Shown in pieces: positions 1-19,506 of a DNA stretch of 64,000 nucleotides. The stretch is from the NCBI RefSeq assembly GCF_002407205.1, contig NZ_CP023548.1, positions 1,946,501 to 2,010,500 of the forward strand. The letters run 5' to 3'. The stretch is from Rhodobacter sp. CZR27. Its GTDB lineage: Bacteria > Pseudomonadota > Alphaproteobacteria > Rhodobacterales > Rhodobacteraceae. Made by a program: the position numbers and the translations under genes. Under the pieces are notes generated by a model. It was not told the origin of the DNA, searched no databases, and saw nothing but the letters and a program-made list of their open reading frames with translations. The stretch's first letter is position 1; every line of letters starts with the position of its first letter.

Positions 1-653
1 CGGACAGGAGCTGCCTGCGGTTTGCGTGCCGAGGCGGGCGTGAGCCCCTGCCGCGCCTGCGCCAGAAGCTCGAGGTCGGCCGCCGTGGCCGGACGCTCGA
101 CGATGGTGCGGCCGGCCGGGTTCTTCATTTCGAAGCGGCCGTTCTCGATCTCGATCCGCGAGCCATCCGGAAGCGTCGCCTCGTGGGCGTCATCATCCGA
201 GCGCGGACCCCGGGCATTGTCGTCGTCCGAATCCGACCCTCCTCGGCCCCTCGAGCCCCCGTGATCATCGTCATGATCATCGTCGTCCCCGCCATGCCCG
301 GAGCCACCATGATCGTCGTCACGATCATCGTCATCCCCGCCATGCCCGGAGCCACCATGATCGTCGCCACGATCATCGTCATCCCCGCCATGCCCGGAGC
401 CACCATGATCGTCGCCACGATCATCGTCATCCCCGCCACGCCCGGAGCCACCGTGGTCGTCACCACGATCATCGTCATCCCCGCCGCGCCCGGAACCGTC
501 CCGGTCGTCTCCGTCCTTCGCAAGGGCGACGGCAGCTTTTACCGAGACAAGCCCGAGACCGGCATCCAAGCTGACACTCCACGGCGCGAGTGCCATCACG
601 CCCGCGAGCGCCATTGTTGCCGTCGTCGTCCTGAGCAGGTTGGCCTTCCTCAT
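1..653 (-). CDS. Secreted Asp/Gly/His-rich repeat protein (C-terminus beyond window)
   Basis: Open on the minus strand from an ATG at 653 to the window edge, so the C-terminus is missing. AGGAG sits about 7 bases before the ATG. Residues 1-37 look like a Sec signal: Arg/Lys start, then an Ala/Leu/Val-rich core. Five 16-residue repeats of the type DDDDRGDDHGGSGHGG follow, then a non-repetitive segment (around residues 150-215) containing DGSRIEIENGRFEM and an Ala/Leu-rich helix. The acidic Gly/His repeats suggest metal or calcium binding, but they are not the RTX nonapeptide. I recognise no family. A strong hairpin separates it from the gene upstream. Confidence 0.7.
   Translation of the reverse strand, partial: MRKANLLRTTTATMALAGVMALAPWSVSLDAGLGLVSVKAAVALAKDGDDRDGSGRGGDDDDRGDDHGGSGRGGDDDDRGDDHGGSGHGGDDDDRGDDHGGSGHGGDDDDRDDDHGGSGHGGDDDDHDDDHGGSRGRGGSDSDDDNARGPRSDDDAHEATLPDGSRIEIENGRFEMKNPAGRTIVERPATAADLELLAQARQGLTPASARKPQAAPV
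261..500. repeat. Five tandem 48-bp coding repeats
   Basis: Five head-to-tail units of exactly 48 bp start at 261, 309, 357, 405 and 453. Units two to four are nearly identical and the outer ones more diverged. They encode the 16-residue repeats of the minus-strand protein. The period is a multiple of three, so several frames stay open on both strands, which explains long spurious ORFs here. Confidence 0.9.
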
Positions 654-2127: not shown

Positions 2128-3698
2128 CGATACTGTTGAAATACTCTCAGTTGGTTTTGACCGGAAGCAATTGCGCGCGTTCTTTCGGCACTCTGCTTCC
2201 ACGCCTGTCGCGTGTATGATCGACTTTCTCAGCCGATCTGCATCGCGGGGGCGTTTGTCAGGCAGAGCTTGGCCAATTTCCGGAGGTTCTGGGCGGTGGC
2301 GGCGAGTATGAACTCGTCCTTCGCTCCCAATGGCCCCCTCAGTCGCAGCCGGCTGAGTCCCAGAATACGTTTCAGATGCGCGAAGAGCATCTCGACCTTC
2401 TTGCGGCGCCTTGAGGCCGTCTCGTTGAAGGCAGACGCCGTGCAGGTTCGGGCGAAGTCGCGCACGATCTCGTATTTGCCGCGTTGCAGGATGCGCATTT
2501 CGCTGTTTGGGCAGCATTGCACCTTCAATGGGCACGCCTGACAGTCCGCTTTCGTGGCACGATACCTGCGTGGGTTCATCTCAGTGGAGAGGCGCGCCGG
2601 GTCGGAATAATTCCGTCGCCTGTGCCGCAGATCCTTCCCTTCCGGGCAGATGTAGCGGTCATCCTCTTCGTCCCAGGTAAAGGCGGAACGTGACAACGTT
2701 CCGTCCGTACGCTCGCCCTCGTCGATCACCGGGATGAAGGGCAGGATCTTTCGCTTCACGACGATCTCGACCAAGCTCGCTTCGGATCCATAGGCTGTAT
2801 CGGCAACCAGCCAGTCGGGGCGAATGTCGAAGCGTTCTGCCGTGCGATCCTGCATCGTCAGCGTTGATCCGACTTCGGCCTGCCGAACAGAACGGGTCGC
2901 CTCGACGTCCATGATGATCCCGTGATCCATGTCGATCAGGTAATTATCTGAATAGGCGAAGAAAGCAGGCCCTTGCGCGCTGCCGTCCACTGGCTGGCAG
3001 GATCGGCATGTGCCGTGAACTTGGGCTCGACGGGCGTGGCCGCACCGAAAGCTACCTCATCGAGTGTGTCGAGATATTCGCGCACCGCCCTCGGGGCCTC
3101 TGAAGGATCGAGGGTGGAGGCGTCCCATTTGCTCTGAGGGCTGGAGTTCTGTTTCTGGACGTCGGCGTTGATCAGGCTTGCATCGACGGCAAAGCCATGA
3201 CCGCCTACCAGGCCATGGGCGATGCACTGGGCCACCACCCGCTCGAAGACGCGACGGAAGATGTCGCTGTCTCGAAACTTGCCGTGCCGGAGCTTCGAAA
3301 GGCTCGAATGATCCGGCACCTTGTCTTCGAGACCGAGCCGACAAAACCAGCGATAGGCGAGGTTGAGGTGAACATCCTGGCACAGACGCCGCTCCGAGCG
3401 CAGCCCCATGACGTAGCCGATGACCAGCATCCGGATCATGAGTTCGGGATCGATCGAGGGCCGACCGGTATGGCTGTAGAAGCCGCGCATCTCCTCGTGC
3501 AGGTCCCTCAGATCAAGGAAGCGGTCTATACCCCGGAGCAGATGGTTGGAGGGGATGTGCGTCTCGAGATCGAACTCGTAGAACAGCCGGGCATGGGCCT
3601 TCTGCCTTCCAAGCATCGCAATCCCTCCAAATCCCTATAATTCAAGGGAATCAGAAGCCTCTACCCCAATCAAGCCCAGAGTTTTTCAACAGTATCGA
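2128..3698 (-). mobile_element. IS1182-like insertion sequence, frameshifted
   Basis: Imperfect terminal inverted repeats bound the element: CGATACTGTTGAAATACTC at 2128 and the complement of GAGTTTTTCAACAGTATCG ending at 3698. One transposase gene lies between them on the minus strand. No clean target duplication is visible; CCGA on the left and TCGA on the right could be a mutated 4-bp palindromic duplication. It lies at the point where the hsdR relic loses its 3' half, and so may have helped remove it. Confidence 0.75.
2229..3616 (-). pseudogene. IS1182-family transposase, one frameshift
   Basis: The N-terminal part (3616 to about 2971) has the DUF772-type domain with HTGRPSIDPELMIRML and RWFCRLGLEDKVPDHSS. 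The C-terminal part (to 2229) has the DDE region with VADTAYGSE, a Cys cluster (YICPEG, CQACPLKVQCC) and a helical tail with HLKRILGLSRLRLRG. The frames switch at 2969-2972; restoring one C turns the run into a continuous KGPAFFAYSDNYL. A programmed shift is possible, but the site is not a slippery A/T run, so I read it as a mutation. Confidence 0.8.
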
Positions 3699-3998
3699 CC
3701 CGAAGCGGCCGTTCGCTGCGCCAATGCCCAATTTTGGCTAGGGGCCGCACCTTGCCCCGTCACGCACCTCGACGCCACCAAGGTGCGCCTGGCGCTCATG
3801 CACTCGCCGCCGGTCGCGCTCCTGCGCGAGTGGCCGGTTTCGCGGGTTTCTGAAGATGCGATGCCGAACCGTGCGGCAGCTCTCCGCCCTGAACTGCAGA
3901 ATGTGGCGACAGGTCCCGATGCAGGTTCGCACTTGCCCGCTCGCCCTTCACCCCCACATGCCGCGCATCTTCGCGGCGACGTCGATCTTCGGGGGCGT
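3699..3998. other. Unassigned remnant between IS1182-like element and hsdR
   Basis: Immediately after the HsdR motif LRPYQIQ the minus strand stops resembling HsdR; the expected Walker A helicase region is absent. No frame in this 300-base stretch gives a recognisable protein. It is probably foreign DNA joined to hsdR by a deletion. Confidence 0.4.
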
Positions 3999-4917
3999 TG
4001 GATCTGGTAGGGCCGCAGAGTGAAGCCGAAGCTGAACTGTTTTGCATCCAGTTCCCGCTCGGCCGCACGGCTATCAACATCGAGCCGTTCCAACACCCCT
4101 CTTGGTGTGAACCAGGCCTCAAGCGCCCGAGAAGCGTTGGCCGGGTCCCGCGTGTCACGGAACCAGATGCCGCTATGCGTCGCCACGGCAGGATAAAAGC
4201 TTCGCCCGTTGGTCGCGAAAATGAAGGGCGCCTTGTGCCCGTCCCACGGGCCACCCGCGAAATCGAAGAAGGCGTCGGGTTGAATGTCCTTCGAATAGCG
4301 GGTCGCCTGCAGATCGACGGCGGACATCACGTTCTTCCGCTTGCGCTTCGCCTCGACCACGCCGACCAGCGTCCGCCCTGCAAAGATCGCATAGTCGGCC
4401 GGACCAGATGCCGTTGGCCATTCTGCGATGGCGATGTTCCGGTTCCTCTCGGGTCGTACACCCCTTGGCATATCGCAAGGCGATGCTGTCAACCTCCCAG
4501 CCGGCCTGACGCAACTGCTGGTCCACCAGCAGCCGCGTATCCCCTTCGTCAAAATCCATGTCCTTGGCGGATTCAAAAGCCGCCGCGATGAACATGCGCG
4601 CCTTTTCCGGCTCTGCGGGCCTCGCCGCCCGGCGTTCGGCGTCATCGGCCAATTCCTCGAAGAGACTTCTTTCTTCCTCCGCAAGGCGCGCGCGTTCCTC
4701 TGCGTCCAGCGCGGCTATTTCCGCAGTCGCTGCCGATCGGTCAGGCGGGTGGGTTCGGCGGACCGCTCTTGCAGCTGTTCCATCAGATGCCGAACCTGCG
4801 CCTTGAGGTCGTCCGCGTCCTCGCTGGCCAGCGTTGGTGGAACAAAGGGTATCGTTAGCCCAAGTATGCGCATGACGGACGCCCGCAGCCAGACGCCAAG
4901 GCGATGACACAGCTTAA
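3999..4917 (-). pseudogene. hsdR: HsdR relic, nuclease-domain half (type I restriction)
   Basis: Reading from 4917 downward, one frame gives PFVPPTLASEDADDLKAQ and a coiled coil. A second frame continues with EIAALDAEERARL and ends in EVDSIALRYAKG. A third frame continues with NIAIAEWPTASGPADYAIF, LVGVVEAKR and TLRPYQIQ. Together these are the linker and the PD-(D/E)xK nuclease domain of a type I restriction subunit (D in ADYAIF, E-A-K in VVEAKR). The frame changes need one missing base near 4735 and one extra G in the G-run near 4470. The helicase motor is missing after 3999. No hsdM or hsdS is present in the window. Confidence 0.8.
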
Positions 4918-6862: not shown

Positions 6863-6930
6863 GGTGAAATCGATGCTTCCATCAGGGAAGCAGAAACGCC
6901 CGTTCTGTGGAAACTATGCTTCCCTCTACA
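6863..6930. repeat. Right end of an older Tn7-like element (RE1)
   Basis: This stretch matches the right end at 18831-18898 almost base for base in the same orientation. It has two probable transposase-binding sites, GGTGAAATCGATGCTTCC (6863-6880) and GGAAACTATGCTTCCC (6909-6924), with a GCAGAAACGCCCGTTCTG-type spacer. Read from outside, its terminal 25 bp matches the left end starting at 6937 at about 20 of 25 positions. It is separated from that left end only by CAAGTC. Confidence 0.8.
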
Positions 6931-6936
6931 CAAGTC
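6930..6936. repeat. Left 7-bp flanking direct repeat (ACAAGTC)
   Basis: ACAAGTC directly precedes the TGTA of the left end at 6937. The same 7-mer directly follows the right end, at 18899-18905. It is most simply a target duplication. Tn7 itself duplicates 5 bp, so 7 would be unusual; part of the match could come from repeated use of the same site. Confidence 0.7.
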
Positions 6937-7058
6937 TGTAAAAGGTAGCATAGTTAGCACAATTATTGGCATCAAGTCATTGAATTCGTTGAACCGATCT
7001 TCCTGCCACTACACCGGAGGAAGCATCGGATTCGCCGGCTGGAAGCATCGGTTTCACC
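6937..7058. repeat. Transposon left end with three binding-site repeats
   Basis: Three direct copies of one motif: AGGTAGCATAGTTAGCAC in the terminal 25 bp (6937-6961), GGAAGCATCGGATTCGCC (7019-7036) and GGAAGCATCGGTTTCACC (7041-7058). The right end has the same motif inverted. This is the expected layout of TnsB-type binding sites. The last codons of the left tniQ copy run through this end. Confidence 0.8.
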
Positions 7059-9018
7059 AAATGCACGCCTTCCTGCCGTTCGAGGTCATCTTCAGGCCTT
7101 TTCGACACGTCGGCAGCCACTTCGTGGCACGGTTCATGGACGCCTTGCCGACGGCCGGCGCGCGCGACGAATGCCTCCACCTCCCGGCGACGGTAAAGCC
7201 TGGTGCCGAGTTCACGCGGATCGCACACGGGCAGCACGTCCGACGCCAAGACCTTCGCGGCTGTGGCAGGATGCACCCCGAGAACGTCCGCGGCCCACGC
7301 CAGCGGAAGGTACGTCTTCGTGAACCTCTCGATTTCGGCAGAAGAGACGTAGGCCTCTGCGTGGAGGCCCCGACATTCCGCGGCGGAGGCGAGGGCCAGG
7401 GTCGGCCAGTTGCCCCCCCGCGACACCAGCCGCTTCACCACTTCCAGGTTGACGCGCAGCAGGACCGCGGCGGATGTCAGCCGGTTCAGGTCTGTTCTTG
7501 ACCGAGCATGGACAAGGACCCGGACCTCTTCTAGGCTGAACCGGAGGCTGTCGAGGCGGTGGCGAGGGCCGATGAGGCGGGTCTTGCGCAGCTTTCCTTC
7601 CATCTGCCAGCGGATGAGTTCCGCCGTGGACGATCGGCCCTTGCAGGCACGGGTAAGGTCCAAGAACCCATCGCCTTCTTCTGACACTTCCGTCACGCCG
7701 GCCGTGGCCCGCACAAGAAACTCCCGTAACTCATCGCGATTGTAGGCTCCAACAGAAAGCCCGCACTTGCCCTCGGCCACGGGGACGACGGAATTCACCA
7801 GGTTCCCAGCCACCAGCTGTTCCGCCTGCGTCTTGCTGCAGCCAAGGAAGCTCTTCAGCTGGTTCTGCGGGATCGAGTTCAGGATCCGCGCGATCAGCTG
7901 CTCACCCTCGGCGGCGGGGAACACCCACTGGTTCAGGCTTCCTGATTGGTGTCTTCCGGGATCATCCCGGCCTTCCGCAGCAGCCGGTAGAGCCGCTTCG
8001 GGTTCAGGCCGGTCTTCACCTTCAGCGAGTTGACGCTGTGAACGCGCAGGCGATCCACCGCCTCACCGAACACCAGTTCGCCGGGCTCGATAACGAAGGA
8101 GTTCTGAATGGCATCTCGTACCAGACCGCGGATGGGACCTGCATCGACCGCCCGGTCGGCGTATTCGAGCCAGCGATAGAGCTTGCCGAAGACGGCCTGT
8201 GGCCCCGTCCGTCCGCTTCGGCGACCCGACATGCGCCGGATCGCGATCAGCGCCTCCGAGATGGCATCCCCGCCTCCGACGCATACGTCGAAGCCGAGAT
8301 GGCCGACCCGCGCCCAGTCGAATTCCGTATAGGCCTTGATTTCGACTTCAGGTCCATCGGCGATGAGGCTGCCGAGCATCTCGCACGCCTTGACGCCCTG
8401 GGCGATCGTCTGTTTGTCGAGCCATGCCGACGCATCACGTCGGCCATCCAGCCACCCCAGGACATATGATTGTAGTTTCCCCTGCAAATGTGGCTCGACG
8501 GGCGGTGCGGAGGTCGCTGACATCTGGTGGTGTGCCAGCAGGGTCGGCAGATCGAATGCCTTGGCGCTGTCGCGGGTGGAGCATTCCACCATTGAGGTGA
8601 CATGCAGGGGGCAGCGGACGACCGGCCGAAGGAGCCAGGACCAGCGGAGGCGCACGGCCCCCTGCCCCAACTCCGGATGGCTGGCAGCATCATCCCTCAC
8701 GCAATCCGGGCAAAACCGGACGGTCGTGCGCAGAAGGACCGGTAAGGACAGCGTCACCCCGCGCAACAGAAAGCTGTCGTCGGATATCCGACGCAGGAGG
8801 TTGCGATCGACGGCATCCGCCTCGGCCCCGTACACCGCCACCAGCGCATTGGCGAACTCCTCGGTGCCATCCCGGAGATCTGGCGGCCGAAGACCGAAGT
8901 ATCCGCAGAACCGTACGACGTCGACGCCGGCATGGAAGTGCCCCAGGCGGCTGAAATATCCCTGCGTTACCTCGTCGGCGCAGACGGGTAGCGTCGGAAG
9001 CAGGAGCGACCGGGTCAT
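6977..9018 (-). pseudogene. tniQ: TniQ-family targeting protein, copy 1, frameshifted
   Basis: Read as one gene it would have about 680 residues. The N-terminal TniQ domain has LPTLPVCADEVTQGYFSRLG and a zinc-finger pattern (FCPDC ... RCPLH). A helical region with GLNPKRLYRLLRKAGMIP follows, then helix-turn-helix-like segments (LNSIPQNQLKSFLGCSKTQA, AWAADVLGVHPATAAKVL). The frame breaks near 7945: GAAGCCTGAAC gives a stop, whereas one more C gives the ALNQWVF found in copy 2. The ATG overlaps the tniB stop (ATGA). The C-terminal 27 residues or so are encoded by the transposon left end. Confidence 0.85.
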
Positions 9019-10158
9019 TCGCCCGCCTTCCGCCGCGACGTCCGCCGCGGCTTTCTCGCACGACGAGGGGCACCGCCTTCGCCGCGGAGTTCGTCCGCTC
9101 GCGCCGCCGCTTCCACCTCTTCCGCGGCACTGGCGCGGCTGGCCCAGTCGCTCAGCACGAAGGGGTTGCTCGGGTTGAAATCGATAAACTCCATATCGAA
9201 GACGGCCTCGAAATCCGTGATCTCAAGGGCGGAGGCGCCATCCTCTAGAGCGTAAACGATCGAGGTCGCGATCAGCCGCATGGCGCGACCAAAACTGCCG
9301 TAGCACCCCTCAAAAATCCGATGTCCGACATATGGGTCGCGGGCGAATGCTGCGCCCGAACTTCAGGCCGGCCTCGCGGGTCAGATCGCGAAGGGCTCCG
9401 TTGATCAGGCTAATCGAGGCGTCCGGCTTGAAGGGGACCAGGGGAAACTCCGGAAGCCGCCGTGGCAGTTCGTCATTCTCCGGCCGGAGGATGAATTGGC
9501 GAAGTCGACTTGTCCCGATCACGATGAGACAGAAGCCTCGTCCGTCCTGAAGAAACGACTTCAGAAACAGGTTGACCGATCGGTCGTTCTTGCCCAGCTG
9601 ATTGTGGACCTCATCAAGTATGATCACCCTGATGCCCGCAAGTTGCAGGCGGTGGACCGTGAGATGCTTGGCCTCGATGTTCGTCATCCGTGCCGGAAAG
9701 CTGCTGAACCCCGTCAGGCGGCAGAGGTCCATGTAGACGCCCTTGATCGTGGCGTCGGAGCGTACCCGGCAGTAAACGACATGCTTGCCGCGTCCCTTGT
9801 CGTCCAGATGATCGCCGAGAGCCCGTGCGACGGCTTTCTTGACCAGGGTGGTTTTCCCTTCGCCGGACGGGCCGACGACGGAAATCCCCTTGGTCTCGCC
9901 GTGGACGCGTTTGGGCTCGGGGAGCAGGTTGCCGTCGTTGTCGCGCCTGAGAACCATCCCGAGCCGTGTAAGGAACTGGTTGTCCCACTCGCTGGAAACG
10001 TAGCAGTTCAAGATCCGGTCACTCACCGAGGCAATGCAGTCGAGCGGGGGCAGAGGCGCCCCCGGCATCGCCTGGGGACCTTCATCGAGGCCGTTCCCGG
10101 GAGGGGCTTCCGACGCCGCAGGGACCGGGCTGGTGGAATTGTTGGTCACGCTGATCAC
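9015..10158 (-). pseudogene. tniB: TniB/TnsC-like AAA ATPase, copy 1, frameshifted
   Basis: About 380 residues if repaired. It carries Walker A GPSGEGKTT, Walker B VIILDEVHNQL and the sensor-like FCLIVIGTSRLRQF. TniB/TnsC is the ATPase that links the target selector (TniQ) to the transposase. An extra G/C near 9340-9343 moves the frame after GRSIR; removing it yields RRDPYVGHRIFEGCYG, which aligns with copy 2. The rest (MRLIATSIVYALEDGAS to the stop at 9015) is intact. The start overlaps the stop of the tniA remnant by 4 bp. It resembles copy 2 at roughly 60 percent by eye, so it is not a recent duplicate. Confidence 0.85.
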
Positions 10159-10290
10159 TCCAACGTTCCGGGTTTCAATGGTGTCTTCTGTCGGCGGCCG
10201 GACGGGCTGCCTTTCGCGGGTGTGTCACGCGCGGTTCCGGATGCCTCCGAAGCAACGGCAGGCACGGAGGGCGCCGGAGTGTTGAGCGAC
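10155..10290 (-). pseudogene. tniA: C-terminal remnant of TniA transposase, copy 1
   Basis: The frame ending at 10155 finishes in TPAKGSPSGRRQKTPLKPGTLE-like sequence. This parallels the tail of the complete tniA (KTPASATLRGRRPKSRVIPGTME-like) in composition, spacing and position directly before tniB. The catalytic part is gone. Upstream, an 18-bp sequence (CAACCACCTTGGCCGGTG) is repeated at 10290-10307 and 10312-10329, probably a scar at the break. Confidence 0.65.
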
Positions 10291-10456
10291 AACCACCTTG
10301 GCCGGTGCCGGCAACCACCTTGGCCGGTGGGGCTGAACGGAAGACGGGCATGCCGGTCTGGAGGGCAGCCCCACCGGCCTGAGTGATTTCGGGGAAGGTG
10401 CTGGTCGCTGCGGGTTGGTAAGCCGGGTTCCTCTGCCGTCAAACGGAGGATCCGGG

Positions 10457-10548
10457 TTGGCCTACAAACCCATCACCGACCAGCAATTGAGATTATACAT
10501 GTCCGACCTCCAGAAGCACAGTCAGCGCACGTCGGCCGCCCGCGCCGG
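10457..10548 (+). pseudogene. istA: IS21-family istA 5' fragment
   Basis: GGAGG followed by a TTG opens a frame reading AYKPITDQQLRLYMSDLQ and then a helix with TSAARAG, the characteristic start of IstA transposases of IS21 elements. Homology stops after about 30 codons, where the sequence passes into the truncated 3' end of tniQ copy 2 on the opposite strand. It marks an IS21 insertion later cut by a deletion. Confidence 0.6.
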
Positions 10549-12068
10549 GACCGCGCGCGCACCAGGGCGCGGATCTCGTCGAGGCAGAAGCGCAATCCGT
10601 CGATGCGCTGCGACGCGCCGATCCGGCGGGTTCTCCGCAGCTGCCCTTCGAGCTGCCAGCGCAGGATCTCGACGGTCGACGAGCGACCCTTGGCGGCCAG
10701 GGTCAGATCAAGGAAGCCCTCGGGGGTTTCGGCCACGACCGGCACCTCGGCGCAGAGGCAGGCCAGGAATTCGGCCAACTCGTCCCGGTTATAGGCGCCA
10801 ACGGACAGACCGATCCCCCCTTCGGCGACCGGAACCACCGAACGCACCATCCCGGCGGCCGCCAGTTGCTCGGCCTGGGTCCGGCTGCAGCCAAGAACGG
10901 TGCGGATCTGGTTCTGGGGGATGGAATTCAGGATCCGCCCGATCAGGCGCTCACCTTCCTCGGCGGGAAATACCCATTGGTTCAGCGCCTCGGCGTCGCT
11001 GTCCGCGGGGATCATGCCGGCCTTCTGCATCAGCCGGTAAAGCCGCTTCGGATTGAGCCCGGTCGCGGCCTTCAGCGAATTGACGCTGTGAACCCGGCGC
11101 CGATCGACAACCTCGCCCAGCACCGTCTCGCCCGGCCCGATGGCGAAGGAATTGAGGATCGTCTCGCGCAGGAGATCGCGGATCGGCCCTGCGTCCTCTG
11201 CCTTCGCCGTGTATTCGAGCCAGAGGAAGAGCTTCCCGAACACGGCCTGGGGGCCGGTGCGGCCGCTGCGACGGCCGGAGCTTTGGCGGATTGCGGTCAG
11301 CGCCGCGGTGACGGCCTCCGCCCCGTCGGCGCAGATCCCGAAGCCGACATCGCCGACGCGCGCCCAGTCGAGGTCGGTATAGGCGTTGATTTCGGCCAGC
11401 GGGCCATCGGCCACGAGGCTGCCCAACATTTCGCAGGCCTTGACCGCCTGGGCGATCGGCTGGCCATCGAGCCAGGCCGCAGCGTCGCGCCGGCCTTCCA
11501 TCCGTGCCACGACATAGGTTTGCAGGGCGCCCGGCACGTGATCGACTGCGGGCGGCAGGCCGCGCGGCAGGGTCTCGTTCCGCACCCGAAGCAAGGTCAG
11601 GTCGAACGCCTTGACCGCCTCCGGTTCCGGGCACTCGACCAGAACCGTCCGATGGATCGGGCAGCTGACCACCGGCCGCAGAAGCCAGGACCAGCGCAGG
11701 CGATTCGCCCCCGGACCGAGGGCGGGGTCTCGGGTGCGATCTTCCGCAAGACACTGCGGGCAGAACCGCACCGTCGTCCGGCGCAGGACCTGCACGGCCA
11801 GGGTTTCGCCGCGGAGGAGATATTCGTCGTCAGGCAACCGGCGCAAGAGGTTGTGCCCAAGCCGTTCCGGATCGAGACCCGCGAGGGCGGCCGCATGGAC
11901 CAGGAACGCCTCGGTGCCATCGCGGAAGTCGACGGGTGGCACGGAAGTGTAGCGGCAGAATCGGCCGACATCGACGCCCGCGTGCAAATGGCCGATCCGG
12001 GCGAAGTAGCCTTGCGTCACCTCGTCGTCATGGAAGGGCAGCGCGGGAAGCAGGGGAGCGAGGGTCAC
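10473..12068 (-). pseudogene. tniQ: TniQ-family targeting protein, copy 2, C-terminally truncated
   Basis: Open for 531 codons. The TniQ domain has LPALPFHDDEVTQGYFARIG and zinc ligands FCPQC and CPIH, then GLNPKRLYRLMQKAGMIP and LNSIPQNQIRTVLGCSRTQA. It aligns with copy 1 without internal frameshift up to VRARSR (about residue 505). There the sequence runs into the IS21 fragment and ends in unrelated RRGRPTCADCASGG. Copy 1 continues for about 175 more residues with a helix-turn-helix-like region, so this copy lacks that C-terminal module. Its ATG overlaps the tniB stop. Confidence 0.85.
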
Positions 12069-13162
12069 GTCGGGATCCCCTTCCCTGCCTTCCGGCGCCG
12101 CCGCGTCTTGCTCGCGGCGCCAAAGTCGCTGTCGATCAGTCCGACGGCATCGCCGACGGCGGCGGTGGCCCGCGCGGCCCAGTCGCTCAGCAGGAATGGA
12201 TTCTCGGGGTTCAAGTACAGCAGATCAAGGTCGAAGACCCGCCGGAAATCCTCGATGTCGAGCGCGGAGGCGCCCTCCTCGAGGGCGAGAACAATCGAGG
12301 TCGAGATCAGCCGCATCGACCGGCCGTAGCTGCCCCGGCACCCTTCGAGAATCCGCTCCGCAAAATAGGGATCACGGCGGATGCTGGGCGCGAGGCGCAG
12401 CCCGGCTTCGGCGCTGAGCCCGTCGAGCGCGCTGTTGATCAGCGCCAGCGATGTTTTCTGCGGAAACCGCTTCAGCGACAATTCGAGAAGCCGCCCCGCA
12501 AGCTCCAGATTCTCTTCGCGCTCATAGATGAATTTGCGCAACACTTCGGTGCCGATGGCGATAAGGCAGAACTCGCCCCCGTCCTGCATGAAGGTCTTGA
12601 GGAAGAGGTTCACCGCCCGGTTGTCGTAGCCGAGCAGATTGTGGACCTCGTCGAGGATCACGATCCGGATGTCGGCCAGGCGCAGCCGGTGCATGGCGAG
12701 TTCCTGGGCTTCGGGAATCGTCATGCGCGCCGGCAACCTGGTAAATCCGGTCGCGGCGCAGAGATCGCGGTAGACGCTTTTCAAAGTCGCCGCGGTGCGG
12801 ACGCGTTGGTAGACGACGTGCCGGCCAACCCGCTTGTCATCGATCCGCTCGCCCAACTCGCGCTCAAGGACCCGCCGGACCAGGGTGGATTTGCCGTCGC
12901 GGCTCGGCCCTGTGACGGCAATGCCCCGGGTCTCGCCGTGGAAGGACTTGGGCTGTGCCTGAACCCGGCCATCGCCGTCGCGGCACAAGACCATCTCGAG
13001 CCGAGCGAGGAGGTCGTTGTCCCAGTCGCTGGAGACATAGCGGTTGCGGATCCAGTGGCAGAGCGCGGGCACATTGTCCCGCGGCGGCCGCGTACTTGCG
13101 GCGAGGGTGGCCTCGATCTCCTCGGCGGCGGGCGTTTCAAGGGGTAGCGTCATGTCGGTCAT
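12065..13162 (-). CDS. tniB: TniB/TnsC-like transposition ATPase, copy 2
   Basis: Intact, 365 residues. Walker A GPSRDGKS is at about 85-92 and Walker B IRIVILDEVHNLL near 165-177. LIAIGTEVLRKFI corresponds to sensor 1, and GSYGRSMRLISTSI to the C-terminal AAA helices. In Tn7-like systems this ATPase binds target DNA marked by TniQ/TnsD and activates the transposase. It overlaps tniA upstream and tniQ downstream by 4 bp (ATGA), so the genes are translationally coupled. It is the only transposition gene in the element with no visible damage. Confidence 0.9.
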   Translation of the reverse strand: MTDMTLPLETPAAEEIEATLAASTRPPRDNVPALCHWIRNRYVSSDWDNDLLARLEMVLCRDGDGRVQAQPKSFHGETRGIAVTGPSRDGKSTLVRRVLERELGERIDDKRVGRHVVYQRVRTAATLKSVYRDLCAATGFTRLPARMTIPEAQELAMHRLRLADIRIVILDEVHNLLGYDNRAVNLFLKTFMQDGGEFCLIAIGTEVLRKFIYEREENLELAGRLLELSLKRFPQKTSLALINSALDGLSAEAGLRLAPSIRRDPYFAERILEGCRGSYGRSMRLISTSIVLALEEGASALDIEDFRRVFDLDLLYLNPENPFLLSDWAARATAAVGDAVGLIDSDFGAASKTRRRRKAGKGIPT

Positions 13163-15446
13163 TCCATCGTTCCTGGGATCACTCGGGATTTCGGGCGGCG
13201 GCCGCGCAGGGTGGCGGACGCAGGTGTCTTGCGCACGGGTTCGAGGACCGGAGCCGCAACCGGGGTCTCCCGGACCACGCCGTCCTCGTCGTGATCGATG
13301 CCGACCGGCGCCCCGTAAAGTCCGTGGGTCTCGGCGCTGGTGAGCTCGGTCGTGGGGGTCCGGAAGTAGCGCAGCGCCCGCTCTTCGGCCTGAAGCAGCC
13401 GCTCCTCGGTCATGGTCTTGCGGCGCACCTTGCGGCGCATCGCAATGCGATCCTCGATCTGGTCGTCGATCTGTTCACCCGCGCGTCGGCGGATCGCCGC
13501 AGCCTCGGGGTCGCGCGCCACATGCGCGCGCTTCAGCACCAGCATCCATTCGTCGACCGAGAGACCCCGCGCCCGCGGGTCCATCACCTCGAGCGGCATC
13601 CAGACCCGGGGTTTCACCTCGACCTGGGCCTCGCTCATGTTTTCTTCCCACCAGCGCACCCGGAAGGCCCGCGTCGGGGACCTGAGCAGCACGCGTGCAA
13701 ACTCCTCGGAGGAATAGTTGGCGTGCATGATGCGGATCCCGGTCCCCTGGGCCCGGCGCGTCAGCGTGGTGCCGAAGACATGGGTCATCACCCGCAGACC
13801 CGGAACCGGCCGGCAGCCCATCCCCACCGCCATCTCGTGACGCCAGAGATCGGCGGGCGTCAGCCCGTCGCGCCCGAGGTTCGGAGAATTGTGATAGATG
13901 TCGACGATCCAGACGATCAGCACCTGGATCAGGTCGTCGATGGTCAGGACCGCTTCGGCCTCGGAATCGTACTCGCCCCGCTTCACCGGGTTCGAGAAGG
14001 TCCGGCCGGGAATACGGGCCAGCAGCTTTTCGTGAACGGTGCGGAAGATCCGCTCCATCAGGCCGCGGATGAAGGCCTTGGCCTTCGGCGCCGCGATCTT
14101 GTCCATCCGCAGCTGGGCGCACATCCGCTCGGTCTCGCCGGCGATATAGGCGTTGCCGGAATCGTGGAGCACCTTTTCGGGGCGCAGGAACTTGTCCCAG
14201 GCCCCTTCCGCGCCGCAGGCCGCCGCGATCCGCGTCTTGTCCATCATCGCCATCATGAAGGTGCGCCGGGCGAGATCCTGATCGGCGGACAGGCCGATCT
14301 GCAGGCCGAGGATGCAACCGGTGAAGGCGTCGATCATCACCGAGAGGATGACCCGGAACGGCGCGTCGCCGGTGATCTCGAGAGCCGCCACCCGATCTGG
14401 GCCGAGCCAGTGGACGAGGAAGTCGAAGGGAACGATCGACATCAGGTCGGCGTCATATTCGTCGATCACGACGATCTGCCCGGCCCGCTCGACCTGAAGC
14501 CCCATGCCGGTGACGAGCTGGTTGCGCAGGAGCCAGTCTGGCCCTTGGCTGCGGAAAGCCTGTTCCAGCGGGCCGAAGCGTTTCACGCGGGTCGCGACGG
14601 TTTTCAGCGAGGGCGGCCGGATGGCCTCCACCGCTCGGCGCTCCGCCGGCTCGATCTCCTCGCCGGCTGTCTCGCGGAGCCGGAGGTCCGCCTCGCGCTC
14701 TTCCCGCAGGCGCACGACACGGCGCTCGACCGCCTCGTGGATCGCCGTGTTGGGAACGCTCTCAAGGCTGCTCAGCCGGTCGATCTCGTCCTCGAGGATC
14801 TCCGCGACCTCGGGCGCAAGCTTGCCGGTGCCATTGCCCGACAGGTGCAGCCGATCGACGAGACCGCAGAAGCCACGCGCCGTCAGCCGCTCGTCCCAAT
14901 CGAGGATGGACTGCGCGGTCGCGGGGTGGAGCGGTTTCTCCCGGCGACGGAACGGGTGGCGCCGCAGCCGGTCGACCTTGCCGGTCAGCAGGTCGATGCG
15001 GCCCGGCAGCAGCTGGAGGATCTCGGGCTCGAGCGCCGCAACGGCCGGCCAAGCCCCCGTTCCTTTGCGATCTCCCGCATCAGCGTGACCGTGGCGTAGC
15101 GCAGGATCAGGTCGTTCGCCGACCGATCGGTGAGCGAGGCCACGAACTCCGGCTTGAAGGTCTGGCTGTGGTCGATGAAGACATGATCGTCCTCGTCGAT
15201 GTCGAGCGTGCCCTCGACCAGCGCCGCGGTCAGTTCGGCATGCGGGATCACCTTGCGGCCGGTGAACTCGATGTCGGGCCGGGTGCCGCGCATCACGTCC
15301 GGGATAGTCTCCGCCTCGGGGTGCGGCAGGACCTCGACCAGATACCCGGTCGAGGCCGCCCGCAGGAAGGTGATCCGGCGCCTGCCGAGCCGGCCGGTGG
15401 TGCCGGCCTCGAACCGGAAGACCGGACCGTTGCCGATCGCCGTCAC
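13159..15446 (-). pseudogene. tniA: TniA/TnsB-like DDE transposase, one frameshift
   Basis: GTG start at 15446 overlaps the tnsA stop. The N-terminal portion (VTAIGNGPVFRFEAG, then SANDLILRYATVTLMRE) breaks near 15048, where one missing C turns GLGPAVAALEPE into a dead end. The frame from 15042 to 13159 stays open and contains the Mu-type integrase core: D in VVIDEYDADL, D in VLHDSGNAY and E in GLMERIF, with D and E 36 residues apart. A beta-barrel-like region and a Pro/Arg-rich tail follow. This is the strand-transfer transposase that would bind the repeats in both ends. Confidence 0.85.
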
Positions 15447-16269
15447 CGCACCCCCTCCCCGCGCGCGACGCGCGTGGCGTGCGAGATCTTCTCTGCGTTG
15501 ACCACGCGCAGTTGCCCCGACCGGATCAACCGCACCAGAGCCCGGAAGCCCCGGGGTCCGCGGTTGATCTCGCCGACCAGCTTCTGCAGCGGGCCGCGCC
15601 GACAAGGGCCTCCACGACCTCGAGCGCCAAGGCGTCCGCTTCGGGATCGGCGTCCCGGCAGCCGCGGAAGAGGTCGGCATTGTACAGCTTGACCGGGTCG
15701 CGGGCGTATTCGGTGACGAGATGCAGCCGGTCGATGACGCCCGCCTTCCGGGCGGCCGCATCCACCTGCACGATCTCGGCCTCGAAGGCCGGTGTGACCT
15801 TGCGATAGGGCTTGTCGGTCAGCCCGAGGCGGCGGTTGCCGGTCTTGACCACGATCTGGTCGATGTAATGGCCGTGGGTCTTGCCGTTCTCGTCGGTCCA
15901 GGGGACCGGGCCGACCTGCTCGATCACGTCGACCGTATCGGGTTCGGCCAGCGCGATCAGCCGTGTGCGGTATTCGCCGAGGCTGCCACACATCGAGATC
16001 TGGCCGGGATCCTCGTCGCTGTCGTGAATGACCATCTGCACCACGAAATGGCCGTGACTGGACTTGGGGACGGGTTTGGCCGCGCGCGAGGGCCGCGGAT
16101 CGTCCCAGACATAGGCAGAGGTCACGGCGTCCTCGCGCGGTTCGGGACCGACAAATATGGACGAGCACCGCGATATGCAGATGTCGCCGGAAGCGGAATG
16201 GCGCCGCGTGGTGCGGCCCTGTCGGGCGTCGGCAGGAAATTCGGAATGGATTTCGCTGGAATTGGACAT
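15443..16269 (-). pseudogene. tnsA: TnsA-like endonuclease, one frameshift
   Basis: Start at 16269 (MSNSSEIHSE) is preferred because GGAG sits 5 bases upstream. A core of about 275 residues carries CGSLGEYRT, PDTVDVIEQVGPVPW, HGHYIDQIVV and LTDKPYRKV, an E...D...xxK arrangement as in TnsA holliday-type nucleases. A base missing near 15598 shifts the frame after VEALVG; repaired, it continues LQKLVGEINRGPRGF to the stop at 15443. TnsA would cut the 5' strands so that the element moves by cut-and-paste. The assignment is by motif and by position before tniA. Confidence 0.7.
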
Positions 16270-16721
16270 GGGATCTCCGGTCCCGGACATCGCTGTGTCC
16301 GAGGGGCTGGGGGGTCATCGGGATTGGGAGGGACGCGCCCGGCGGAGCGGTCGGCGGTCCTGCGCGGGCAAAGGCGGGTTATGGTCTCGGCCCCGGCTCA
16401 GGCTGAGCCTTCGGGGGCGGTCGGGGACGATCTCCTTTCCTGGGCGCCCTCAGGGGCGGTTTCTGTGGAGGCACATTCGGCGGGGCGCGCGAAAATCCGC
16501 AGGGGAAATTTGCGGGCGCCGAAAGAGCCGGGGTTGGGGCGGAACGCCATAAATATCAGAGGTTTGCGGATTCGTAGCCCGCCCTTCGCCCGGGGAGGCG
16601 AAAATGTTTCGTCGCGTTGTCCATCGGAAAAGCCGTCGAAGATCCCGCCGTCGCTGAGGTCGAGTCGGACCGGAGTGACGGCCAGGGCCGCGACAGCGAG
16701 CGTGCGGTTCACGGCGGGCGC
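16270..16721. other. Region between AAA gene and tnsA, no gene seen
   Basis: No ORF has a credible product. On the minus strand an AT-richer patch (TGATATTTATGG, around 16545-16557) and GGAAAGGAG without a start codon near 16435 are the only signal-like sequences. It probably holds the promoter of the tns operon. Confidence 0.35.
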
Positions 16722-17828
16722 TCACTGCAGCGGCGGCCGCCGTTCCAACCCTTCTGCACGGTCGAGCATGCGGATCACGGCCCGCAGATCCGGCCGGTGC
16801 CCCTGCACCGTCGCCCAGGAGATCGCGGTGCAGACCGCGTCGATCGAGGCGTCGGAAAGACTGCGCCGCGCCCCTTCGCGCCCAGCGAACGCGACCAGAT
16901 GATCGCGCGACGGCGAGTCCAGTCGGATCGGCGGGCACCGGCTGAGCAAGGGTTCGGGCAGCCCTCGCCAGTCGTTGCAGGTCAGCACCCAGATGATCCA
17001 GCCCATGTCGAAGACCACCTCGTAATAGGGGCACGTCCAGCGCCGCGCCGACAGCGGTTCAAACAACGGCAGAAGCGCATCGGTCAGCGAGAACACCCGA
17101 CCCTGCGTGGTGCGCGCCTCGCTGGCCTTCTCCACCTCATCGACAACGACCACCGGATTGGCGACCAGCCGGGTGAGGATCAGGTTCACCAGCCGTCCGG
17201 GCACGGCGTTGCCCCAGCCGCGCTGGGATCCGACCAGGCCGAAGCTCGCATTCTCGGTCGTCGACTCGAAGATCAGGTCGGGCACGCGGATGAGGCCCGC
17301 CAGCCACCTTGCCCAACGGCTCGTGCCGATGCCGGGCGGCCCGTCGAGCAGCATCGGCGGCAACCGCAGCCCGGCCTCGCCGGATTGCACCGACCGCCGC
17401 ATTTCATGCAAGATCGCCTCGTTCGCCGGACCCATCCAGGGAAACTCCGCGTGCAGCGCGGCTGCGATCTCGTCGGCGCGGTGTTCCGAAGCCAGGGCCA
17501 CCAGGTCCACGCCGTTGCGCAGCCCTTCGAAGCGCTCGCGCTGCTCCCGTTTCAGCCGGTGAAGCGGCGACAGACGGTCTGCGCGCGCGGCAATACAGGC
17601 CGCCCGCCGGGCAATCCGCTGTCGCACATCGCGCGACAGCGCGACATGCAGCTCCAAGTGCTCGAGTTTGTCCTCCGCGGCGAGATGGTCTGGAATGATC
17701 AGCCCCGTTTTGCTCGCCTTGAGGCGCCGGGCATGGAGTGACAGCCGGTCCTTGATGGCGGACTCGCTCAAGGCGGAATCGGGGAAGATCGGCTCGGTAA
17801 TCGGGATGCGGGGCATGGGGGGGTCCAT
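16722..17828 (-). CDS. Lon-like AAA protein with altered Walker A
   Basis: 368 residues. The AAA domain (about 125-345) has FPWMGPANEAIL, a Walker A-like GPPGIGTS at 163-170, Walker B VVVVDEVEKA, and LTCNDWRGLPEPLLSRCPPI with the arginine-finger region. It resembles the ATPase part of Lon, but the invariant Lys of GxxxxGK is Thr169 (ACG for AAG) and no Lon protease domain follows. The N-terminal half is helical and Arg/Leu-rich. It may be an inactive ATPase, a sensor-like subunit or a decaying gene. It lies in the transposon upstream of tnsA and is probably cargo or an accessory. Confidence 0.75.
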   Translation of the reverse strand: MDPPMPRIPITEPIFPDSALSESAIKDRLSLHARRLKASKTGLIIPDHLAAEDKLEHLELHVALSRDVRQRIARRAACIAARADRLSPLHRLKREQRERFEGLRNGVDLVALASEHRADEIAAALHAEFPWMGPANEAILHEMRRSVQSGEAGLRLPPMLLDGPPGIGTSRWARWLAGLIRVPDLIFESTTENASFGLVGSQRGWGNAVPGRLVNLILTRLVANPVVVVDEVEKASEARTTQGRVFSLTDALLPLFEPLSARRWTCPYYEVVFDMGWIIWVLTCNDWRGLPEPLLSRCPPIRLDSPSRDHLVAFAGREGARRSLSDASIDAVCTAISWATVQGHRPDLRAVIRMLDRAEGLERRPPLQ

Positions 17829-18109
17829 AAGGCATGAGGGGTCCGTCGGGCGGCCAAAGGGCCGTCCGGAAACGGGCGGGAAAAGGGTGATGCGACGGTC
17901 AGGCGGCTGGGGCGTGCAGGGTATTCGGGAGGGTCATGCCGCCTTCCGCAGGTCCGCGGGAGGACCGTGAGTCCATCGGAATTGACTGCAATCCGAACGG
18001 ACGATTCGAGTCAAGGCACTGATTTTTCGTGGAAATCTGAAAATCGGAAAGGAGGCGCACTATTCCCAAAACCGCGGCGGGCAAATGCCGCGGCGACCTC
18101 ACTTCGACT
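17829..18109. other. No gene seen
   Basis: Upstream of the AAA gene and the McrC fragment. Both strands give only short ORFs without motifs. It may contain the AAA gene promoter, reading toward lower coordinates. Confidence 0.3.
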
Positions 18110-18772
18110 GTGTTGGCTCCGCGACATTTCGCCTCCAAATCCACACCCGTTGGGCGGCGCCGGCAGCCTTCCATGGTATGGTCGTCGAGGCACAGCGGAA
18201 GGACATGCCATGGGGTTGGGTCGCGTCCGTTCGTCGGAACGCGAGTTGAATCTCGCACCGCAACGCCCTCAGCATCTTCAGTTTGCCCGAAAAACGGCAG
18301 CGCCGACTGCGCAGCAGCACCTCCGGCCACAACCCAGTGGTCTGGACAACAGACCTCCGCGGACGCTGTCATACACGGACCAGGCGCGGTCTGCCTGTTC
18401 AGTCAGGCGGGTGGAGCGAAGCTTGCTCTATACGACCCACTCGAGGCAGGAAAAGACAACCCGCCTGTCACCCCGGACATCGTTATCGAACGGTCCGGAA
18501 AGCCGGTGCTTGTCATCGATACCAAATATAAACCTGCTCCGAGGATGCCCGAGCGCGGCGACGTCAATCAAGTCGTCGTATACGGTGTGCGATACTCGAC
18601 CGACCTAATTATGCTGCTACACGCCGGTCGACCCGACAGACGCGCACATGCCGAGCACTGCGGCGACATCGGTGGCTTCAGTCTCTACAATGGGATGATC
18701 GACCTCGACGCAGCCTCAATTGAGGACGAAGAGCGAGATTTCATCAAAGCGATCCGATCACTGATCAAGTGA
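18110..18772 (+). pseudogene. McrC-like restriction protein fragment
   Basis: Only the last 130 codons or so (from about 18380) look like protein: VTPDIVIERSGKPVLVIDTKYK, then GDVNQVVVYGVRYSTDLIMLL. This is the PD-(D/E)xK core (TPD...DTKYK) and following helix of McrC, the nuclease partner of McrB in type IV methyl-directed restriction. The upstream part of the frame is Ser/Arg/Pro-rich with no similarity. No mcrB is present. It lies just inside the right end of the transposon and is most simply degraded defence cargo. Confidence 0.65.
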
Positions 18773-18830
18773 CAACTCTTAGCCGCTCTAGAGCTGTGAA
18801 GGAGGTGGAGCACATGACAAGGAGGGATTT

Positions 18831-18898
18831 TGTGAAACCGATGCTTCCATCAAGGAAGCAGAAGCGCCCGTTCTGTGAAAGCTATCCTTCCCTCTACA
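18831..18898. repeat. Right end of the Tn7-like transposon (RE2)
   Basis: Two inverted binding-site motifs, TGTGAAACCGATGCTTCC (18831-18848) and TGTGAAAGCTATCCTTCC (18874-18891), separated by a spacer that includes the palindrome GCTTCCATCAAGGAAGC. The terminal CCCTCTACA reads TGTAGAGGG from outside and pairs with TGTAAAAGG at 6937. It is nearly identical to the older right end at 6863-6930. Confidence 0.8.
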
Positions 18899-18905
18899 AC
18901 AAGTC
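18899..18905. repeat. Right 7-bp flanking direct repeat (ACAAGTC)
   Basis: Directly abuts the right end and matches the 7 bases before the left end. It lies between the element and the HNH gene stop codon (18922-18924). Confidence 0.7.
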
Positions 18906-18921
18906 CGCAGATTCACACACC

Positions 18922-19506
18922 TCAGGCTTCCAGCTCGGCATCCCAGTAGAGATAGTCCAGCCAGCTGTCGTGCAGGTGGTTCGGCGGAAAGCGGCGACCA
19001 TGGCGCTGCATTTCCTCGGGCGTGGGCTCGCGCGGGGGGCGGAAGAGCCGGAACCCCGCCTGCTTCAGCGTCTTCGACCCCTTGCGGAGATTGCAGGGCG
19101 AGCAAGCGGCGACCACGTTCGTCCAGCTGGTGATGCCTCCCCTTGCCCGCGGGATCACGTGGTCGAACGTCAAATCCCCCTTCGCGCCGCAATACTGGCA
19201 GCGGAACTCGTCCCGCAGGAAAAGATTGAAGCGCGTGAAGGCCACGCGCTTCTGGGGTGTCACGAATTCCTTGAGCACCACGACCGAGGGTATTCGAAGC
19301 GCGGCGCGCTGGCTGCGCACGACCTGGTCGTATTCGGCGACGATCGAGACGCGGTCGAGGAAGGCCGCCTTGATCGCCTCCTGCCAGGGCCAGAGCGACA
19401 GCGGATAGTAGGACAGCGGACGATAATCCGCGTTCAGCACGAGTGCCGGATAATGCTTCAGCGTCGCGGGCTCGCGCACGAAGCTGGTCCTGAAATCGCC
19501 GTCCAT
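18922..19506 (-). CDS. HNH endonuclease family protein; likely attachment gene
   Basis: Intact, 194 residues. The HNH core is bracketed by two zinc-type Cys pairs: FRCQYCGAKGDLTFDHVIP, RARGG, then NVVAACSPCNLRKGSK. The N-terminal half (LKHYPALVLNADYRPLSYYP) is typical of a chromosomal HNH protein widespread in alphaproteobacteria whose role is not settled. The C-terminus ends in DSWLDYLYWDAELEA. The stop lies 23 bp from the transposon right end, so the 3' coding end is the probable target seen by TniQ. GGAG-type signals precede the ATG only weakly. Confidence 0.85.
   Translation of the reverse strand: MDGDFRTSFVREPATLKHYPALVLNADYRPLSYYPLSLWPWQEAIKAAFLDRVSIVAEYDQVVRSQRAALRIPSVVVLKEFVTPQKRVAFTRFNLFLRDEFRCQYCGAKGDLTFDHVIPRARGGITSWTNVVAACSPCNLRKGSKTLKQAGFRLFRPPREPTPEEMQRHGRRFPPNHLHDSWLDYLYWDAELEA

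What the first reader, a model, noticed from the sequence alone, without database searches (positions are those of the whole stretch)
6863..18905. Stacked Tn7-like elements at one site
An older right end (6863-6930) lies one TSD-length from the left end of the present element (6937). The present right end (18831-18898) has the same orientation and nearly the same sequence. Both right ends are followed by ACAAGTC. This is the pattern left when a second Tn7-like element inserts between the first and its attachment gene. hsdR remains would then be cargo of the first and mcrC/AAA of the second.
Basis: partly seen in the sequence, partly recalled or inferred. Interest (0 to 1): 0.82.

Follow-up and report, generated by a model that had tools for sequence, protein, structure and literature searches.

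The report
Fused pile-up of Tn7-like transposons
Site-targeted jumping elements of one family landed at least three times beside the same bacterial gene, and the remains of two of them were later fused into a broken hybrid, so one apparent transposon is really parts of several.

Summary
The two right ends (6864-6930, 18832-18898) and the left end at 6937 are real, and no dispersed repeat: two hits in this genome. The HNH gene is the attachment gene: all four other genomes that the TniQ scan returned carry a matching right end just 3' of HNH; two of them, readable at both ends, have 5-bp target duplications, CCTTG and CCCGA.

So stacking is supported, but two elements are too few. 6937-18898 is not one transposon. 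It holds the left end, tniQ, tnsC and a tnsB stub of element B, then 270 bp of an IS21, then a truncated tniQ with tnsC, tnsB, tnsA and the right end of element C. B and C are old, separate lineages (TniQ 61% identical), and the flanks disagree (AAGTC, ACAAG). With the outer right end A, at least three insertions used one target, and an IS21-linked deletion joined two of them. Five of the tns genes are broken. The AAA gene is Lon-like, not McrB. Adjacent Tn7-like insertions are known; HNH as attachment gene was not found in the papers searched.

The parts
6864..6930 (+). Right end of element A (outermost, body lost): TnsB-type sites at 6864 and 6907, terminal ACA
   Evidence: 67-bp match to the inner right end; 63 of 68 identical to the Rhodovulum right end; site scan
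6931..6936 (.). CAAGTC, target sequence left between right end A and left end B; AAGTC is the half duplication of B
   Evidence: direct reading; 5-bp rule from G299 and G301
6937..7060 (+). Left end of element B: TGT terminus, TnsB-type sites at 6944, 7019, 7041
   Evidence: same layout as left ends of L057 and L059
6977..9018 (-). tniQ of element B, pseudogene, frame break between 7936 and 7960
   Evidence: PF06527 E 2.5e-13; break
9015..10158 (-). tnsC of element B, pseudogene, frame break near 9334-9341
   Evidence: PF05621 E 1.3e-12; break
10155..10279 (-). 3' stub of tnsB of element B
   Evidence: alignment with the 3' end of tnsB of C
10280..10549 (+). IS21 left end and 5' part of istA, cut off
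   Evidence: 10279-10562 is 97.9% identical to an IS21 copy on contig C2 of the same genome (L147); true identity ends at CCGGG, 10549
10545..12068 (-). tniQ (TnsD-type) of element C, about 155 of 662 C-terminal residues lost; CCGGG (10545-10549) is shared with the IS21
12065..13162 (-). tnsC of element C, open
   Evidence: PF05621 E 1.2e-12; one frame
13159..15431 (-). tnsB of element C, frame break between 15042 and 15048
   Evidence: its intact relative in L057 matches solved TnsB chains, E 1.5e-17
15455..16125 (-). tnsA of element C, frame break between 15553 and 15589
16722..17828 (-). Lon-like AAA+ ATPase gene beside tnsA, conserved cargo
   Evidence: PF00004, lon model E 8.9e-14 but far below its cut-off, 81% in L056 and 53% in L057
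18110..18772 (+). McrC-like fragment, opposite strand, cargo of C
   Evidence: PF10117 E 0.0011, below the cut-off
18832..18898 (+). Right end of element C: TnsB-type sites at 18832 and 18875, terminal ACA
18899..18921 (.). 23 bp between right end C and the HNH stop codon; begins ACAAG, the half duplication of C
18922..19506 (-). HNH endonuclease gene, the attachment gene (open)
   Evidence: PF01844; 277 of 295 family genomes; right ends beside it in relatives
3686..4910 (-). hsdR fragment between IS5/IS1182-type genes; cargo of element A possible, not shown
   Evidence: PF04313, REase_I, transposase models

Best explanation
A Tn7-like subfamily of Rhodobacterales uses a long TnsD-type TniQ protein to recognise the 3' end of a core HNH endonuclease gene. 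TnsA, TnsB and TnsC then insert the element, usually 19-23 bp past the stop codon, right end towards the gene, with a 5-bp duplication. The gene is left intact, so the site can be used again. In this genome at least three elements (A, B, C) landed there in three registers of the same stretch ACAAGTC. An IS21 then entered tnsB of B, and a deletion with a 5-bp CCGGG overlap joined the IS21 to tniQ of C, removing the rest of B, its right end and the left end of C. What is left is a dead hybrid. Shown: ends, duplications in two relatives, two tns lineages, IS21 junction, frame breaks, recurrent use of the site. Inferred: that TniQ binds the HNH gene, and the order of events.
For: Two near-identical right ends in one orientation, only 2 hits in the genome. 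A matching right end next to HNH in 4 of 4 other genomes returned by the TniQ scan. A DNA search with the Rhodovulum right end hits 3 of 394 family genomes: this one, Rhodovulum itself and the Defluviimonas MAG again, each beside HNH apart from the outer copy here. A right end also in G295, and weak fossils in G296 and G051 (scores 33, 20, 19; 28 other HNH flanks 7-12; 1000 letter shuffles mean 8.8, highest 18). Exact duplications CCTTG and CCCGA. HNH and zwf are neighbours in 12 of 28 loci without the element, and zwf lies 0.2-1.8 kb beyond the left end in the three relatives whose left side is held. Two tns sets, 61% identical in TniQ, while TniQ of C is 91% identical to a Cereibacter azotoformans protein and 83% to P0053 of the Rhodovulum type. 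IS21 junction. TniQ model: TniQ core plus helical C-terminal extension.
Against: If C had simply landed between right end B and HNH, the five letters after its right end should read CAAAG; they read ACAAG, which fits landing beside right end A or at an empty site. So the plain order A, B, C needs two base changes or an exchange between alleles. Element A is known from one end only: no left end or tns remnant was found in 111 kb to its left. The fossils in G296 and G051 lie only just above the best shuffle. One relative (G301) is inserted 84 bp, not about 20 bp, from the stop codon. The TniQ tree leaves the place of B within the HNH-type group open. TniQ binding to HNH is not tested.
Confidence: 0.85

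Rival explanations
1. Two alleles of the locus, one with A-B and one with A-C (or C alone), were joined by strain-to-strain exchange: homologous recombination on the HNH side and a short-homology joint between the IS21 in tnsB of B and tniQ of C. (A variant of the best explanation: same three insertions, other assembly.)
For: Fits every flanking letter: B landed in CAAGTC beside right end A (AAGTC), and C landed in ACAAG beside right end A or at an empty site. C has a 91% relative in another Cereibacter strain. The joint has 5 bp of homology.
Against: No genome with A-C or A-B alone was seen; two base changes in a non-coding flank would also do.
Confidence: 0.25
2. One reading: an old element A, and one later element 6937-18898 with a 7-bp duplication ACAAGTC.
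For: ACAAGTC occurs on both sides (6930-6936 and 18899-18905), and the outer ends point the right way.
Against: Relatives have 5-bp duplications (2 of 2 read). The interval holds two divergent tns sets with a truncated IS21 between. The repeated ACAAGTC follows anyway if every element lands in the same target.
Confidence: 0.08
3. One element whose tnsBC-tniQ block was duplicated in place.
For: The copies lie at a constant spacing of about 3.05 kb.
Against: Copies are only 71-74% identical in DNA and 61% in TniQ, less than C is to elements in other genera; the four relatives have one copy of 72% or more each, further TniQ places being at most 32%; the joint is an IS21 remnant.
Confidence: 0.03
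4. The 67-bp match is a dispersed repeat unrelated to tns genes.
For: The outer copy has no tns genes on its own left side.
Against: Two copies in this genome and hits in 3 of 394 family genomes, each beside HNH except the outer copy here.
Confidence: 0.01

Closest known systems
Tn7 at attTn7 (glmS), TnsABC+D
   Same: tnsA-tnsB-tnsC-tniQ/tnsD order, TGT...ACA ends with repeated TnsB-type sites, 5-bp duplication, right end towards the conserved gene, gene left intact (TnsD binding the end of glmS: start of the abstract of PMC2918618 in a search listing; the rest of the Tn7 facts recalled)
   Different: Attachment gene is an HNH endonuclease gene, insertion about 20 bp past the stop; TnsA and TnsB too far for Pfam models; tnsE not searched for
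Tn7-like elements inserted in or beside one another (heteromeric transposase genomic islands)
   Same: Benler et al. (PMC8649781, passages) mention an element moving into or next to an existing one, giving several left and right ends, and cite Peters et al. 2014 (not looked up, not read)
   Different: Here two bodies are fused into one apparent element by an IS21-linked deletion
TniQ/TnsD continuum of Faure et al. 2023 (PMC10293859, passages)
   Same: Single long TniQ (662 aa in relatives) with a C-terminal extension, of the size that paper expects to select the target directly
   Different: HNH does not occur in that text; Cas or TnsF partners were not searched for here
IS21 family
   Same: TGT terminus, istA start, 97.9% to a copy in the same genome; family name by resemblance to istA of L038 (71% DNA) and recalled istA features; istA/istB are annotated as such in L145
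   Different: Only 270 bp left, at a deletion joint

Membership tests
Tn7-like transposon | TnsB DDE transposase | tested here: met
   Relative L057 TnsB matches TnsB chains of the PDB, best E 1.5e-17; no Pfam hit
Tn7-like transposon | TnsC AAA+ regulator | tested here: met
   PF05621 TniB and PF13401
Tn7-like transposon | TniQ/TnsD selector | tested here: met
   PF06527 in both copies; six fold matches at E 0.001 or better, all TniQ or TniQ-Cascade chains, best E 2e-5, but low whole-chain TM-scores (0.26 by query, 0.40 by target); no sequence match in the PDB
Tn7-like transposon | TnsA endonuclease | tested here: inconclusive
   No Pfam or PDB sequence hit; invariant E51, D89, K105 in 31 aligned rows, catalytic reading recalled; one homologue is named TnsA endonuclease N-terminal in UniRef; structure job never accepted
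Tn7-like transposon | Ends with repeated TnsB-type sites, TGT...ACA | tested here: met
   that these sites bind TnsB is inferred
Tn7-like transposon | 5-bp target duplication | tested here: met
   G299 CCTTG, G301 CCCGA; Rhodovulum left terminus decayed, Defluviimonas contig ends before it; in the window no matching pair remains
Tn7-like transposon | Fixed insertion next to a conserved gene | tested here: met
   19-23 bp from the HNH stop in 5 of 6 measured, 84 bp in one
CRISPR-associated transposon | Cas genes or guide array in the element | not tested
   No dedicated search was made

The most novel reading that the evidence does not exclude
The HNH endonuclease gene next to zwf is a genus-wide landing strip for divergent Tn7-like elements. 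Their similar ends did not prevent repeated landing, and occupied alleles are shuffled between strains, building chimeric elements whose left half and right half come from different insertions.
Probability: 0.25. Interest if true: 0.5.

Novelty: new member of a known kind. Interest (0 to 1): 0.42.

Why it matters
It adds an attachment gene for Tn7-like elements, with exact ends and duplications in two relatives, so the site could be tested as a landing site in Cereibacter and related bacteria. It also warns that two outer ends with tns genes between need not be one transposon: a boundary finder that takes the outermost ends could report 6937-18898 as one element. Three insertions at one site, with right ends about 90% alike, bear on how target immunity fails or fades.

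Tried and rejected
Element A's left end: no further TnsB-type sites were found from 1842001 to the window except one chance hit at a gene start (1862599), and no tns remnant with L057 proteins as queries. The 118 kb between HNH and zwf in this genome looked like an island, but it holds a tRNA-Thr gene, and part of the left flank matches G051 about 1.65 Mb from its HNH gene, so it is at least partly a chromosomal rearrangement. AAA as a core transposition gene: rejected, since 3 of the 30 AAA loci examined have a recognisable tnsA within the 1.5 kb held (30 of the 54 places listed became loci, and far tnsA types would be missed) and it occurs in an AAA-DUF6634-metallophosphoesterase cassette. 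hsdR and McrC-like pieces have no match in the 14 loci compared. In some searches the flank of L086 was taken at the wrong place; one search repeats the scores with placed HNH genes, and its figures replace those (28 other loci unchanged at 7-12, highest shuffle 18 instead of 16). The scores of 68 for L060, L062 and L063 are self-matches. Papers: HNH does not occur in PMC8649781, PMC10293859 and PMC11406308; one search gave no paper; searches (2 papers; 62 papers, 12 listed; 1 paper) were seen as listings only, apart from the papers named here. PMC2614081 and PMC6904524 are not held; Parks and Peters 2007 and Peters et al. 2014 were not looked up. TnsA structure: never accepted by the machine.
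Full report
OBSERVATION. The two right ends match at 61 of 67 bases in the same orientation (6864-6930 and 18832-18898). A 198-bp query over the outer right end and the left end finds only itself and the inner right end in the 4.4-Mb genome. A scan for TnsB-type sites (five patterns, up to 3 mismatches) over 128.5 kb finds seven sites in the ends and one stray. The Rhodovulum right end searched in 394 family genomes hits 3: this one (both copies), Rhodovulum itself and the Defluviimonas MAG already found by TniQ; each lies beside HNH apart from the outer copy here. The search adds no new host and would miss farther right ends. So the feature is real and not dispersed.

ATTACHMENT GENE. The gene at 18922-19506 is an HNH endonuclease gene, found in 277 of 295 family genomes. 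A scan of the genome collection with the TniQ pair returned four loci in other genomes: Rhodovulum euryhalinum DSM 4868, a Tobar MAG, a Defluviimonas MAG and a RIFCSP MAG. In all four genomes a matching right end lies just 3' of HNH. In the Tobar genome (G299) the right end is followed by CCTTG and the left end preceded by CCTTG; in the RIFCSP genome (G301) both are CCCGA. This fixes the ends (TGT...ACA) and the 5-bp duplication. Distance from right end to the HNH stop: 23 (window), 21 (G299), 19 (G300), 20 (G298) and 20 (G295) bp, and 84 bp in G301. G299 and G301 carry nearly the same element (TniQ 97%, right ends 68 of 68) at different points, so these are separate insertions. Of 28 HNH loci examined without the element (the best-scoring of the family sample), 12 have zwf within 1 kb, same strand; some loci end too soon to tell. 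Beyond the left end zwf follows at 172 bp (G299), 826 bp (G301) and about 1.8 kb (Rhodovulum). So the elements sit between HNH and zwf. Within the genus, 4 of 5 genomes have the HNH hit: this one; G295 with a right end but no tns genes in the 58.5 kb examined; and G296 and G051 with weak right-end fossils (scores 20 and 19; 28 other loci 7-12; 1000 letter shuffles mean 8.8, highest 18).

NOT ONE ELEMENT. Reading the minus strand from HNH leftwards: tnsA (frame break 15553-15589), tnsB (break 15042-15048), tnsC (open), tniQ (cut at about residue 507 of 662), then the joint, then a second set: a tnsB 3' stub (10155-10279), tnsC (break near 9334) and tniQ (break 7936-7960), then the left end at 6937. 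Between the sets, 10279-10562 is 97.9% identical to an IS21 copy on contig C2 of this genome; true identity stops at CCGGG (10549), which tniQ also has. TniQ of C is 91% identical to a protein of Cereibacter azotoformans, 83% to P0053 (nearly the Rhodovulum protein), 73% to two Tobar-type proteins (P0050, P0051), but only 61% to TniQ of B. The tree sets both apart from 11 farther rows but leaves B's place among the HNH-type rows open. The four relatives have one copy of 72% or more each, further TniQ places being at most 32%. So B and C are separate lineages, and the left end at 6937 and the right end at 18898 come from different elements.

REGISTERS. With the 5-bp rule, right end A is followed by CAAGT, left end B preceded by AAGTC, and right end C followed by ACAAG (letters): three registers of one stretch ACAAGTCC, 22, 21 and 23 bp from the stop. 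B fits exactly as a landing beside right end A. C fits exactly as a landing beside right end A or at an empty site, but not beside right end B, where CAAAG is expected. Either two bases changed, or the A-B and C alleles met by exchange between strains. This is open, and it is why I give the order of events less weight than the number of insertions.

MECHANISM. Shown: ends, duplications, recurrent insertion at HNH, double tns set, IS21 joint, frame breaks. From knowledge of Tn7 (partly the start of the abstract of PMC2918618, partly recalled): TnsD binds the end of the conserved gene and TnsABC insert downstream, leaving the gene usable. Inferred: TniQ here does so with HNH. A model of the intact Tobar TniQ (mean pLDDT 82, pTM 0.66) has a core and a C-terminal series of small helical units; the best fold matches are TniQ chains (E 2e-5, low whole-chain TM-scores), and BldC/MerR- and Xis-like DNA-binding domains match weakly (E 0.79 and above). 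Target immunity is described in PMC11406308 and PMC12452197 (passages); the latter saw no re-insertion for its element but cites a study that did. Repeated landing here means that immunity failed, faded or did not cross between these elements.

CARGO. The AAA gene is Lon-like, not shown to be McrB, and lies on the strand opposite to the McrC-like fragment, whose Pfam score is below cut-off. It is beside tnsA in the window, L056, L057 and a far relative in this genome, L111, where it is 60% identical although the Tns proteins are 29-36%. In two plasmids it sits with DUF6634 and metallophosphoesterase genes. So it is best read as a travelling cassette. The hsdR remnant may have been cargo of A, but nothing shows it.

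NOVELTY. Adjacent Tn7-like insertions are known (PMC8649781, passages). HNH as attachment gene was not found: the word does not occur in PMC8649781, PMC10293859 or PMC11406308, and searches listed no title or abstract start that says so; many papers are not held. I file it as a new member of a known kind, with an unusual fused state.

Noticed in passing
G000:C1 about 1256628-1263406 (L111) and 1281244-1287532 (L112): Two further tnsABC-tniQ sets, far from the HNH-type one, in the same orientation about 20 kb apart; perhaps a second stacked site; attachment gene not identified.
   Followed up: partly
window 16722-17828; L057 4296-5390; L111 1629-2729: Lon-like AAA gene of an AAA-DUF6634-metallophosphoesterase cassette sits beside tnsA in divergent Tn7-like elements; function unknown, only weak defence-system scores.
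   Followed up: partly
L039 1657-4650 (G051), L037 6940-11420 (G296): Between HNH and zwf lie transporter- and reductase-like genes (arsenic-type by eye, no search made) behind a weak fossil right end; they may be cargo of a lost element.
   Followed up: no
L056 (Rhodovulum euryhalinum): The element there is also defective: the 3' part of tnsB and the 5' part of tnsC appear deleted, and its left terminus is decayed.
   Followed up: no
window 205-512: Five overlapping copies of a repeat with 48-bp spacing.
   Followed up: no
G000:C1:1843476-1965425: HNH and zwf, neighbours in relatives, are 118 kb apart here, and part of the left flank lies far from HNH in G051: a rearrangement with one breakpoint perhaps near the stack.
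   Followed up: partly
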